From positions 651,626 through 715,625 of the forward strand of contig NW_006920872.1 in the NCBI RefSeq assembly GCF_000417875.1: a DNA stretch of 64,000 bases. The letters run 5' to 3'. This DNA is from Pseudozyma flocculosa PF-1 (lineage: Eukaryota; Basidiomycota; Ustilaginomycetes; Ustilaginales; Ustilaginaceae). How positions within the stretch are numbered: position 1 is the first letter of the stretch; each line of letters begins with the position of its first letter. Of this stretch, positions 8,747 to 13,012 are shown piece after piece. The notes under the pieces are model-generated. The model worked only from the letters and a program-made list of their open reading frames with translations. It ran no database searches and was not told the DNA's origin. A program made the position numbers and the translations under genes.

Positions 8747-8869
8747 TCAAGCAACGACGCAAGCACCACCCCAGGGGCGTCCAGTCTTGCTAGGATCCTC
8801 GTTGTTGACCGGGGCCTGCTCAGTGGAGACAGCCTGGACCGAGGTGAAAGGTGCGAAGAGGGCGTCCAT
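8747..8869 (-). CDS. Lipopeptide mating pheromone precursor 1 (mfa-type, CAAX end CVVA)
   Basis: A 40-residue single-exon precursor: starts MDALF, contains APVNNE and ends GRPWGGACVVA. The terminal C-V-V-A is a CAAX box for farnesylation of Cys37, removal of VVA and carboxyl methylation, as in fungal a-factor-like pheromones; smut pheromone precursors often begin with M-x-x-I/L-F and end in CVVA/CLIA/CTIA. The shared APVN-x-E block in both precursors suggests N-terminal processing just after Glu24, leaving a predicted mature peptide of 13 residues starting at Asp25 and ending in Cys37 (inference). A TATA-like word (minus strand GATATAAGG, about 8991-8999) lies about 125 bases upstream, with four ACAAAGGG elements farther upstream. 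Lies between pantothenate synthetase and the receptor, on the receptor's strand. Confidence 0.88.
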   Translation of the reverse strand: MDALFAPFTSVQAVSTEQAPVNNEDPSKTGRPWGGACVVA

Positions 8870-9913
8870 GGTGAGAAAGGTGCGAAGGTGATGAAGCTCT
8901 GAGAGAGAGGGTAAGAGAGAGGTAGGTGCTGTAGAAGAGATTGTTGGTTGTTCGATGTCGAGGAAGCAATCTGCCTGTTTGAGTGCTCGCCTTATATCGT
9001 TTGCGAGCACCGTGCAGACCTGAAATGTCCTACGAGGTCGCTCGTTGAGACTGCGAAGCATCGCTTCGTGGGTGGGCCCCCGCCCATCCACAGGGGATTG
9101 CACGTTGAGCAACATTTTGCCCACGCTCCAGCTGTATGAAAGGGCCACAGATGCCACGGTGTTGAAGAAAGGGCCGGTGGCGGTAGCTGCCCTTTGTCAC
9201 GCCCGCGGCCCCGCCGTCACGCGACAAATGCCCTTTGTTCCGCTACAAGCCCCCGCCCTCGCCGGTCGCGACGACTGCCCTTTGCTTGCTTCGCTACAAA
9301 GCCGCTCTCTCCCCCTCTTCCCTTTTCCTCCCCTTTCTCCCCAGAGGCGAATGTCACGGTATTTCTTCACGCATCAGAGACCGCGCGACCGCACATTAAA
9401 CAAAGGGACAGAACTGTAAAGATCCCACGAAAGTGAAAGGGGAGACCGAGACCGCTTGCTGGCACATCCGAGTACATTGCCATGAAATGGAGCAACACTG
9501 CTCGCTAGCCCATGCACAAAGGGAAGCAGCAGATGCAGAGCGAGTGGCTTTGACCGGCTTCCTCGTAGAGTCTCTCACATACCTCAAAGGCACGGATGAC
9601 GACCGCGGCACATCTGACTTTCCCTGGTGTTCCGCATAGAAGGCTAATACCAACTCCCGCTCAGGAAGACGTGCACGCAGCAGCGGGGAGACAGTCACAG
9701 AGAGCCACAGGCAACCGATCAGATATCCATGAATCAACGCCGAGGCGTCACATCGCTTCTACAAGGCCTTGGAACTTCTCGTGTGGCGACGAAAGCATCT
9801 TGGGAGAGCAGCTCCAACGTTTCATATTATTGTCGGACAAAGGTTTCGTGTTACGATTTCGATGGGGGGATGACGCCGTGCAGTCTTTGATCGATCGTGA
9901 CGCAAAGGCAAAG
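8870..9913. promoter_or_regulatory. Promoter region of pheromone gene 1 and 3' end of receptor gene
   Basis: Lower-GC stretch between the pheromone start codon and the receptor stop codon. It contains ACAAAGGG-core elements at 9190-9197 (reverse), 9231-9238 (reverse), 9400-9408 and 9516-9524; the last two are full ACAAAGGGA. A partial match lies near 9832. No additional gene is evident. Confidence 0.6.
9190..9524. promoter_or_regulatory. Cluster of four pheromone-response-element-like motifs (ACAAAGGG)
   Basis: Reverse-orientation cores at 9190-9197 and 9231-9238, and exact ACAAAGGGA at 9400-9408 and 9516-9524. ACAAAGGGA is the known binding sequence of the HMG-box regulator Prf1 in Ustilago maydis, which activates pheromone and receptor genes. 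The cluster lies 320-655 bases upstream of pheromone gene 1. Function here is inferred from motif and position. Confidence 0.7.
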
Positions 9914-11308: not shown

Positions 11309-12877
11309 CGCGTTGTCGATGATGTGTAGAAGAGTGTTGGTGGTGCTTCGAGGTGCTGGAGCGTTCCGCACGGTGTGCGCTTCCCTATATATTGACTCTT
11401 CAGAAAGCTCGGATCCCAGAAAGATCCTGACGGGCCGCAACCATGGTGGCCATGGTTACGCCTCCGGCAAAAACGCAGTGTCCATTGCGGCTCCTGTCCG
11501 ACACACAAAGGGCTTTTTTTGGACGTGAGAAAATTCTGCCGCTCCGACAAAGGGGAGAAAAAAAGGGAGGAGGGCCCGGGGAGATTTCTTCTTGATTGAG
11601 CCCGAGGAAGGTGACACGTCGGAGGACGAGGACCGAGGCAGTGTGGCCGGATGGTGGTACAAAGGGAACCCTACGAACGGCATCGAGCTTGCCTGAGGGC
11701 GCTTGTTGAATTTTCTTTGTGTGCATGACGGCAGGCATGGGCAGACACGTGCAATCCCTGTCCTCGGCCGCCACCGCTGCTGACGCTGCTATGGGTACGT
11801 ATCGGTCTGTAGGTAGCACGTCCCTTTCTCCTCGTGCTCGAACTACCACAATCATGAATAGGTAGACGATGCGCCCACAAAGGGATCTTATTTGCTCGCT
11901 CGCGCCCGGGGCTGACTGGGCGCGTAGCCCCCATGGCGCTGTGGCTCCTGCGTGAAGAGACTCTGCGAGAGCTAAAATTCGTGGTGCCACCCGAGGGATA
12001 GCACCCCTTTGCTCCGACGAGTCCATGCCAGCGCTCAGGACCAGGTCGTCGTTCTGTGCGGACCCGACAGCGCAAGCCAAGCAGAATCCCTTTGTCCGTC
12101 GGTCAAGGTGTTCCCTTTGTCCCAGAGCAGAGATACCGATCCCGACAATTAGTCTCGCAGCCGTGTGCCCGCGCCAATCCTCCCGTCTTTCGGCAACAAA
12201 ACGACATTCGCAGGCAGACCGGGTCCGACGAAGACAACGGCTAAGAGCACGCCAGACCGTGCCCAGGATAGACGCCACAAAGGGGCACGGATCGTCGGCG
12301 GGTCTTGTGTGGACTGCCCCTTTGTCTGACAATCTCATCGAAGGCGTGAGTCTGTTACGACTGCCACTCTGCTGCCGCACTGAGAGGTGAATGCCAAGAT
12401 AATGGGCAACATGGCCGGGATCGAGCATGACAGTCATGCGGGGGAGGTGTGCCGGGCCGTCTTGGTTGTGGAGAGTCCTTGCGCCGGTGAGAGCCGTGAG
12501 AGGTCGGGTACCGCCCCTGCCTTGAGCCCTGACCACGCCCGCGCTCCCCTTTGTCATCTCCGTACACCAGGTCGTCGCGAAGGGCTGTGTGCGAAGGACA
12601 GGGCGCAAGCACCTAGCCTCCCTCCGTACAGCGCGGTTCGCCAGAAGGGTCGCCCAGGGGATCGCCGTCGATGGGCCGCTCGCTGATGCGGCTCTCCTTG
12701 AACAGCCGCTAGGGTGGTCTCGACACCGCCTCGGAACGATAAATACCACTCGCGACGGTGCCGATGTTGTTCTCTGCTCCTCATCAACTCACACATCCTC
12801 CTCTCTCACACACCTTCAAAGCCTCGCTTCCCGACACTTCTTCGCTTCCCCAGCAAAACCCCCCTCACTCTATCACA
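11309..12877. promoter_or_regulatory. Shared divergent promoter of receptor and pheromone gene 2
   Basis: 1.57 kb between the receptor ATG (minus) and the second pheromone ATG (plus). It carries nine ACAAAGGG-core elements (listed separately), a TATATAT box at 11386-11392 for the receptor, and a GATAAATACC box at 12738-12747 about 135 bases before the pheromone ATG. A 449-codon open frame on the minus strand (11400-12749) has no recognisable family and biased low-complexity composition, and is not taken as a gene. A CT-rich leader precedes 12878. Confidence 0.65.
11505..12554. promoter_or_regulatory. Nine pheromone-response-element-like motifs in the shared mating promoter
   Basis: Forward: 11505 (ACAAAGGGC), 11547 (ACAAAGGGG), 11659 and 11877 (exact ACAAAGGGA), 12277 (ACAAAGGGG). 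Reverse: 12087 and 12112 (exact TCCCTTTGT, 16 bases apart), 12317 and 12546 (CCCCTTTGT). These match the Prf1 recognition sequence of smut fungi and are spread across the region between the divergent receptor and pheromone genes, so one element could serve both. Motif positions are read directly; binding is inference. Confidence 0.72.
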
Positions 12878-13012
12878 ATGGACGCCATCTTCAACGTTGT
12901 TGCCCCTACCGTCGTCGGCGCCGCCGAGACCCAGGAGGCTCCGGTCAACTACGAGATCCGCAAGCCCGGCCAGCAGTGGCAGGACCGCGGCTCTTTCTGC
13001 ACCATCGCCTAA
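12878..13012 (+). CDS. Lipopeptide mating pheromone precursor 2 (mfa-type, CAAX end CTIA)
   Basis: A 44-residue precursor starting MDAIF and ending RGSFCTIA, with the C-T-I-A farnesylation box (Cys41). It shares the MDA-hydrophobic-F start and the APVN-x-E block (APVNYE, residues 21-26) with precursor 1, but the putative mature part is quite different. If cleavage follows Glu26, the peptide runs Ile27 to Cys41, 15 residues (inference). It therefore encodes a distinct specificity, as expected in a system with more than two receptor alleles. Transcribed divergently from the receptor gene. A GTGAGT donor at 13082, 70 bases after the TAA, suggests a 3'-UTR intron. Confidence 0.88.
   Translation: MDAIFNVVAPTVVGAAETQEAPVNYEIRKPGQQWQDRGSFCTIA

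What the first reader, a model, noticed from the sequence alone, without database searches (positions are those of the whole stretch)
8747..13012. Mating-type pheromone/receptor locus with one receptor flanked by two different pheromone genes
A STE3-type receptor (9914-11308, minus) lies between two CAAX-ending precursors (8747-8869 minus, CVVA; 12878-13012 plus, CTIA). U. maydis a alleles have one active pheromone gene per receptor. Two functional, dissimilar pheromone genes per haplotype is the layout known from Sporisorium reilianum, where three a alleles exist and each haplotype makes the pheromones for the other two. This predicts at least three a-locus specificities in the species.
Basis: partly seen in the sequence, partly recalled or inferred. 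Interest (0 to 1): 0.92.

Follow-up and report, generated by a model that had tools for sequence, protein, structure and literature searches.

The report
Two-pheromone a1-type smut mating locus
A yeast-like smut relative studied as a biocontrol agent of powdery mildew carries a complete-looking fungal mate-recognition locus, one receptor with two different pheromone genes, a layout already known as common and probably ancestral in this order of fungi.

Summary
The window is the Pseudozyma flocculosa PF-1 genome. One STE3 receptor gene (four exons, 9914-11308 minus) lies between two farnesyl-type pheromone precursors (8747-8869 minus, CVVA; 12878-13012 plus, CTIA). Chance is excluded: 2 such ORFs in 64 kb against 0.09 expected; 13 pheromone-response cores in the two spacers against 0.085. 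No second copy was found in the assembly. The receptor is sister to the Pra1 class (98/94, 99/94); Pra2 could not be tested.

One receptor plus two pheromones does suggest three specificities, but this is not special to Sporisorium reilianum: published work reports three alleles across Ustilaginales and two pheromones in almost all Pseudozyma genomes surveyed. Three alleles in PF-1's own species are unproven, and published transcriptomes found these genes silent during biocontrol.

Two additions: the deposited receptor model probably has a wrong 3' end, and PF-1's receptor is 41% identical to another 'P. flocculosa' receptor that is 87% identical to Anthracocystis walkeri, so the two very probably are different species. 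Known kind, useful deep-branching member.

The parts
8747..8869 (-). Pheromone precursor gene 1, 40 aa, CAAX box CVVA; mature peptide inferred as the last ~13 residues up to the farnesylated Cys
   Evidence: translation; one of only 2 strict CAAX ORFs in the window; no second copy found in the genome; 4 PRE cores within 660 bp upstream
9190..9523 (.). Four PRE cores (ACAAAGGG, both orientations) upstream of pheromone gene 1
9914..11308 (-). STE3/Pra-type pheromone receptor, exons 11308-11107, 11027-10710, 10644-10203, 10127-9914; Pra1 class
   Evidence: gene model; Pfam STE3 on the deposited protein; trees; exon 4 reads a tail resembling that of Pra1 proteins
11505..12554 (.). Nine PRE cores in the spacer between the receptor and pheromone gene 2, which are divergently transcribed from it
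12878..13012 (+). Pheromone precursor gene 2, 44 aa, CAAX box CTIA
   Evidence: translation; no second copy found in the genome
13601..13808 (.). Two further PRE cores on the right side of the locus
6481..7924 (-). panC (pantoate-beta-alanine ligase), in two overlapping ORF pieces; a known flanking gene of smut a loci
   Evidence: Pfam PF02569; flank role PMC3248468
3619..5416 (+). aro4-like DAHP synthase, in pieces; also listed as an a-locus flanking gene
   Evidence: Pfam PF00793; PMC3248468
13901..14371 (-). Right-hand neighbour: UIM-bearing ORF, perhaps the 3' part of an RPN10-like proteasome gene (name inferred, not tested)
   Evidence: Pfam PF02809

Best explanation
This is the pheromone/receptor (a, PR) mating locus of a haploid Ustilaginales yeast, of the Pra1 (a1) class. 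The cell displays one Ste3-type receptor and secretes two different farnesylated peptides, neither expected to activate its own receptor. By the rule known from this order, each peptide is meant for one of the two other receptor classes (Pra2, Pra3), so the haplotype is built for a three-allele system. A Prf1-like HMG factor acting on the clustered PRE sites would switch the three genes on together. Shown here: the three genes, their intact frames, the PRE cluster, no second copies found, and a receptor on the Pra1 side against Pra3 and Tilletia. Inferred: processing, which pheromone serves which receptor, the regulator, the survival of three alleles, and present use.
For: Gene structures and intact CAAX ends. 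STE3 match. Receptor sister to 9 Pra1 proteins with support 98/94 and 99/94 without Malassezia and mushrooms; grouping with Pra3 rejected at p-AU 0.0146 and with Tilletia at 0.0086; identity 39.1-44.8% to the 9 Pra1 against 26.7-32.1% to the 9 Pra3. 13 PRE cores in the two spacers against 0.085 expected. No rga2-like gene was recognised in the receptor-pheromone spacer, as expected for a1, rga2 being reported in a2 and a3 loci (PMC3248468); this rests only on ORFs and Pfam. panC and aro4 beside it. The published finding that, in the genomes surveyed, pheromones matched other alleles and never the own receptor (PMC10262431).
Against: No Pra2 sequence was retrieved, so a Pra2 placement is not formally excluded. 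No reference smut pheromone was retrieved (one search found only the window's own two), so the Mfa1.2 and Mfa1.3 assignments are untested. The pheromone, receptor and b genes were silent in published biocontrol transcriptomes (PMC6079639). No second strain of this species was seen. The HD (b) locus was not located here.
Confidence: 0.72

Rival explanations
1. The species is now biallelic and one of the two pheromones is a leftover without a partner receptor, as in U. maydis and S. scitamineum, only less decayed.
For: S. scitamineum is bipolar and has a second pheromone gene lacking CAAX, and U. maydis a2 has a pheromone remnant (PMC4466345); several smuts have a pseudogenised second copy (PMC10262431).
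Against: Both precursors here have an intact start, CAAX and stop, and both have PRE cores upstream.
Confidence: 0.2
2. The locus is intact but unused: the lineage reproduces clonally and the genes persist because sex was lost recently or is rare.
For: No transcription of pheromone, receptor or b genes in biocontrol assays (PMC6079639, passages); the fungus is described as anamorphic (PMC7870139).
Against: Silence without a partner or under biocontrol conditions is not loss; no frame damage in any of the three genes. Compatible with the best explanation for the layout.
Confidence: 0.3
3. The receptor is a fourth class that split from Pra1 before the known Pra1 proteins, with its own recognition set.
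For: It lies outside all 9 Pra1 rows, Ustanciosporium included (100/99 and 100/98 for the clade without it), and at 39-45% identity is further from them than Ustanciosporium and A. walkeri Pra1 are from each other (56%).
Against: A published phylogenomic tree places PF-1 as sister to other Ustilaginales (as reported in PMC10262431), which predicts just this position for an ordinary Pra1 orthologue; PMC3248468 considers a fourth allele highly unlikely.
Confidence: 0.07
4. Self-signalling: one of the two peptides activates the cell's own receptor (self-fertile).
For: Only that two peptides sit beside one receptor.
Against: No such case was reported in the Ustilaginales genomes surveyed (PMC10262431).
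Confidence: 0.03

Closest known systems
Sporisorium reilianum a1/a2/a3 loci (Schirawski et al. 2005; not held, known here through passages of PMC5871698)
   Same: One receptor and two pheromone precursors per haplotype
   Different: There all three alleles are known; here one haplotype of one strain. The precursor sequences could not be compared
a1 loci of other Ustilaginales (Ustanciosporium gigantosporum, Anthracocystis walkeri, U. xerochloae; PMC3248468)
   Same: Pra1-class receptor, PRE sites; panC and aro4 named there among flanking genes
   Different: PF-1's receptor is 39-45% identical to the Pra1 proteins compared and falls outside their clade; its right neighbour is a UIM-bearing ORF
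PR loci of Pseudozyma genomes (Steins et al. 2023, PMC10262431)
   Same: Anamorphic yeast, one receptor, two pheromones
   Different: That study used strain CBS 167.88 under the name flocculosa, not PF-1; the receptor recorded as P. flocculosa (P0009, taken to be theirs) is 40.9% identical to PF-1's
Ustilago maydis a1
   Same: Ste3-type receptor, CAAX pheromone, PRE control; the CVVA end of precursor 1 equals that of U. maydis Mfa1 (recalled, no call)
   Different: U. maydis has one working pheromone per haplotype

Membership tests
Ustilaginales a (PR) mating locus | STE3-type pheromone receptor | tested here: met
   Pfam STE3 291.7 bits, cut-off 29.2, on the deposited protein
Ustilaginales a (PR) mating locus | Short precursor(s) with C-terminal CAAX within a few kb of the receptor | tested here: met
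Ustilaginales a (PR) mating locus | Clustered PRE sites | tested here: met
   15 of 16 ACAAAGGG in the window lie at 9190-13808; 6 have the full ACAAAGGGA
Ustilaginales a (PR) mating locus | panC beside the locus | tested here: met
   not universal (missing in Us. gigantosporum)
Pra1 (a1) class | Receptor groups with Pra1 rather than Pra3 | tested here: met
   support 98/94 and 99/94; Pra3 grouping rejected, p-AU 0.0146
Pra1 (a1) class | Receptor groups with Pra1 rather than Pra2 | not tested
   no Pra2 protein was retrieved
Pra1 (a1) class | No lga2/rga2 in the locus | tested here: inconclusive
   the one long ORF of the 1.57-kb spacer has no Pfam match; no reference Lga2 or Rga2 was compared
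Three-allele PR system | Two intact, dissimilar pheromone genes per haplotype | tested here: met
   precursors 55% identical, mostly different in the C-terminal part
Three-allele PR system | Three receptor alleles in the species | not testable with these tools
   one strain only
Three-allele PR system | Pheromones orthologous to the Pra2- and Pra3-directed types | tested here: inconclusive
   one search found no relatives of either precursor other than themselves

The most novel reading that the evidence does not exclude
PF-1 is not Anthracocystis but a lineage branching before the split of the sampled smut families, and its locus shows that one receptor with two pheromones was already in place at the root of the order; at the far end of this reading, its receptor is a fourth recognition class rather than a deep Pra1.
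Probability: 0.3. Interest if true: 0.5.

Novelty: new member of a known kind. Interest (0 to 1): 0.3.

Why it matters
It would add a deep-branching, complete example to the evidence that smuts began with three mating specificities, and it says what partners a biocontrol yeast described as anamorphic could in principle recognise. It also cautions that two genomes filed under one species name very probably are not one species, so they must not be read as two mating types of it.

Tried and rejected
A search for relatives of the two precursors in 5.8 billion proteins returned only the window's own two, so the peptides could not be assigned to Mfa types. Two receptor searches returned Pra1, Pra3, Tilletia and other receptors but nothing recognised as Pra2. 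The HD (b) locus was not found: Homeobox_KN, Mating_N and Mating_C gave nothing, with all 14 controls silent too, so absence is not shown; Homeodomain gave 3 scattered genes on contigs 8, 9 and 1 in which I saw no adjacent divergent pair; a WFxNxRR-type pattern gave 3 scattered hits against 6 for its control. PMC6079639 names pf03264 and pf03265 as the b genes. HMG boxes: 6 matches, none assigned to Prf1. ICMT family: 3 hits at two places, but the family also matches in 5 of 14 controls, so this is weak support for pheromone methylation. No solved structure matches the receptor by sequence at E 0.01. The long minus-strand ORF at 11403-12788 has no Pfam match and even codon-position GC, so it is taken as chance.

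The papers by Schirawski 2005 and Lefebvre 2013 are not held; that the latter reports intact mating loci in P. flocculosa is recalled, not read. What was seen of papers: outline and named sections of PMC3248468 and of PMC10262431 (6, 9, plus passages); passages of PMC5897528, PMC4466345, PMC5871698, PMC7766764, PMC10522849, PMC6079639 and PMC7870139; PMC5719756 gave no passage; others only as search listings. The AU groups were named after a first tree had been seen, so their p-values are a little generous. Of the nine proteins called Pra1, six carry that label from their source (a1 or receptor 1) and three (P0009, P0011, P0012) are so called by their place in the tree; of the nine called Pra3, three carry it (P0038, P0041, P0046), PMC10262431 calls strain SY62 PRA3 (P0050), and five are so called by place.

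Full report
What is there. The window lies on contig C4 (1,083,256 bases) of a 23.05-Mb assembly of 33 contigs. A search with the receptor returned a 100% identical protein over 82% of it, PFL1_01711 of Pseudozyma flocculosa PF-1, on a contig of the same length, 1,083,256, so the window is that genome. The receptor gene has four exons on the minus strand between 11308 and 9914; the deposited protein matches Pfam STE3 over nearly the whole profile. On the left, 8747-8869 minus encodes a 40-residue precursor ending CVVA; on the right, 12878-13012 plus encodes a 44-residue precursor ending CTIA. The two precursors are 55% identical, alike at the start (MDA.F) and in an APVN(N/Y)E stretch, and mostly different in the part that would become the secreted peptide. 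They look like old duplicates that have diverged in the mature part. By analogy with other basidiomycete pheromones (recalled) the mature peptides would run from after that E to the Cys, about 13 and 15 residues; this is inference.

More than chance. Of all ORFs of 28-70 residues in the 64 kb, both strands, exactly 2 end in C-[VILT]-[VIL]-A, and they are these two; the expectation is 0.09. With a looser ending there are 5 distinct ends (6 start/stop combinations) against 0.99 expected; the other 3 show no likeness to pheromones. The PRE core ACAAAGGG occurs 16 times in the window against 1.29 expected, no shuffle of 100 reaching 16. Fifteen lie between 9190 and 13808; 13 are in the two spacers, against a mean of 0.085 and a maximum of 2 in 2000 simulations, and it is the commonest 8-mer there. 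PREs at smut a loci are described as ACAAAGGGA (PMC3248468); 6 of the sites have that ninth base. The genome search, which scores only its best candidates, found one STE3 gene and one copy of each precursor.

Which class. I placed the receptor in a tree of 32 rows: the window's receptor and 31 of the 55 database proteins retrieved. It is sister to nine Pra1 proteins with support 98/94; the nine Pra3 proteins form a separate clade, 100/100. Without Malassezia and the mushroom receptors (26 rows) support is 99/94; holding it with Pra3 costs 26.5 log units (p-AU 0.0146) and with Tilletia 28.4 (p-AU 0.0086). Identity is 39.1-44.8% to the nine Pra1, 26.7-32.1% to the nine Pra3, 28.4-36.6% to the six Tilletia proteins and 28.7-33.1% to Parajaminaea, Malassezia and the mushrooms. 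Pra2 is missing from this test, because neither search returned one. That a2 and a3 loci carry rga2 (PMC3248468) fits an a1 reading of a 1.57-kb spacer with no recognised gene, but I had no Rga2 to compare.

Gene model. The deposited protein ends in TWIALLTKGTE. Taking the acceptor at 10128/10127 instead gives a tail (ATF...SSPESERFG) that resembles the Pra1 proteins' tail (VTF...SP.SEKF). The resemblance is short, but the deposited 3' end is probably wrong.

How it works. Reported for the order: one receptor per haplotype, with pheromones only for other alleles (PMC10262431); pheromone signalling leads to conjugation hyphae (PMC3248468 section 10). Two pheromones per haplotype go with three classes, as in S. 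reilianum, where pheromones aimed at one receptor are said to have the same sequence whichever allele makes them (PMC5871698, passages). I therefore read PF-1 as a1, making one peptide for Pra2 and one for Pra3. Which is which is not tested. A lead from memory only: U. maydis Mfa1, which acts on Pra2, also ends in CVVA, which would make the left gene the Pra2-directed one.

What was known. Three PR alleles are reported as ancestral in Ustilaginaceae and present in Ustanciosporium outside it, from 47 receptor sequences (21 pra1, 13 pra2, 13 pra3). The same survey reports only one pheromone in the S. reilianum, S. sorghi, S. scitamineum and Testicularia genomes it used, so the two-pheromone layout is not universal and the S. 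reilianum accounts disagree. U. esculenta has three mating types that mated in all three pairings (PMC10522849). For P. [quoted passage not shown] So the kind is known and the locus has been mentioned; whether both precursors of PF-1 are described in print I could not check, as the genome paper is not held. The database search listed the two precursors with no source but the window.

Species name. A receptor recorded as Pseudozyma flocculosa (P0009; I take it to be from strain CBS 167.88, the one sequenced in PMC10262431, though the record shown names no strain) is 86.6% identical to that of A. walkeri but 40.9% to PF-1's, within the same Pra1 class. Steins et al. already remark that their strain and PF-1 fall in different places, PF-1 being sister to other Ustilaginales in the tree of Benevenuto et al.. 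The receptor tree agrees: PF-1 lies outside all nine Pra1 proteins, Ustanciosporium included. The assemblies also differ in size and G+C: 18.7 Mb and 57.15% for CBS 167.88 against 23.05 Mb and, in this window alone, 62.3%. The two should not be treated as two mating types of one species.

Verdict. Observation confirmed; interpretation partly supported, since the three-allele prediction is reasonable but neither new nor shown for this species. Interest 0.3.

Noticed in passing
window 9914-10127 (exon 4 of the receptor): The deposited model PFL1_01711 uses another 3' exon and ends TWIALLTKGTE; the exon proposed here reads a tail resembling that of Pra1 proteins.
   Followed up: yes
proteins P0009, P0005 against the window's receptor: A receptor recorded as P. 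flocculosa (probably strain CBS 167.88) is 86.6% identical to A. walkeri but 40.9% to PF-1: the two flocculosa genomes are very probably different species.
   Followed up: partly
protein P0044 (Ustilago nuda NDA18_000792): Falls in the Pra3 clade, although the U. hordei group is described as biallelic and U. nuda is listed with pra1 in PMC3248468.
   Followed up: no
window 41090-44392 (+): CDC24-type RhoGEF with PH and PB1 domains, about 28 kb from pheromone gene 2; a polarity factor that could act in the mating response, but the linkage may be accidental.
   Followed up: no
window 13601-13808: Two PRE cores to the right of pheromone gene 2, beside the UIM-bearing neighbour rather than upstream of a mating gene.
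   Followed up: no
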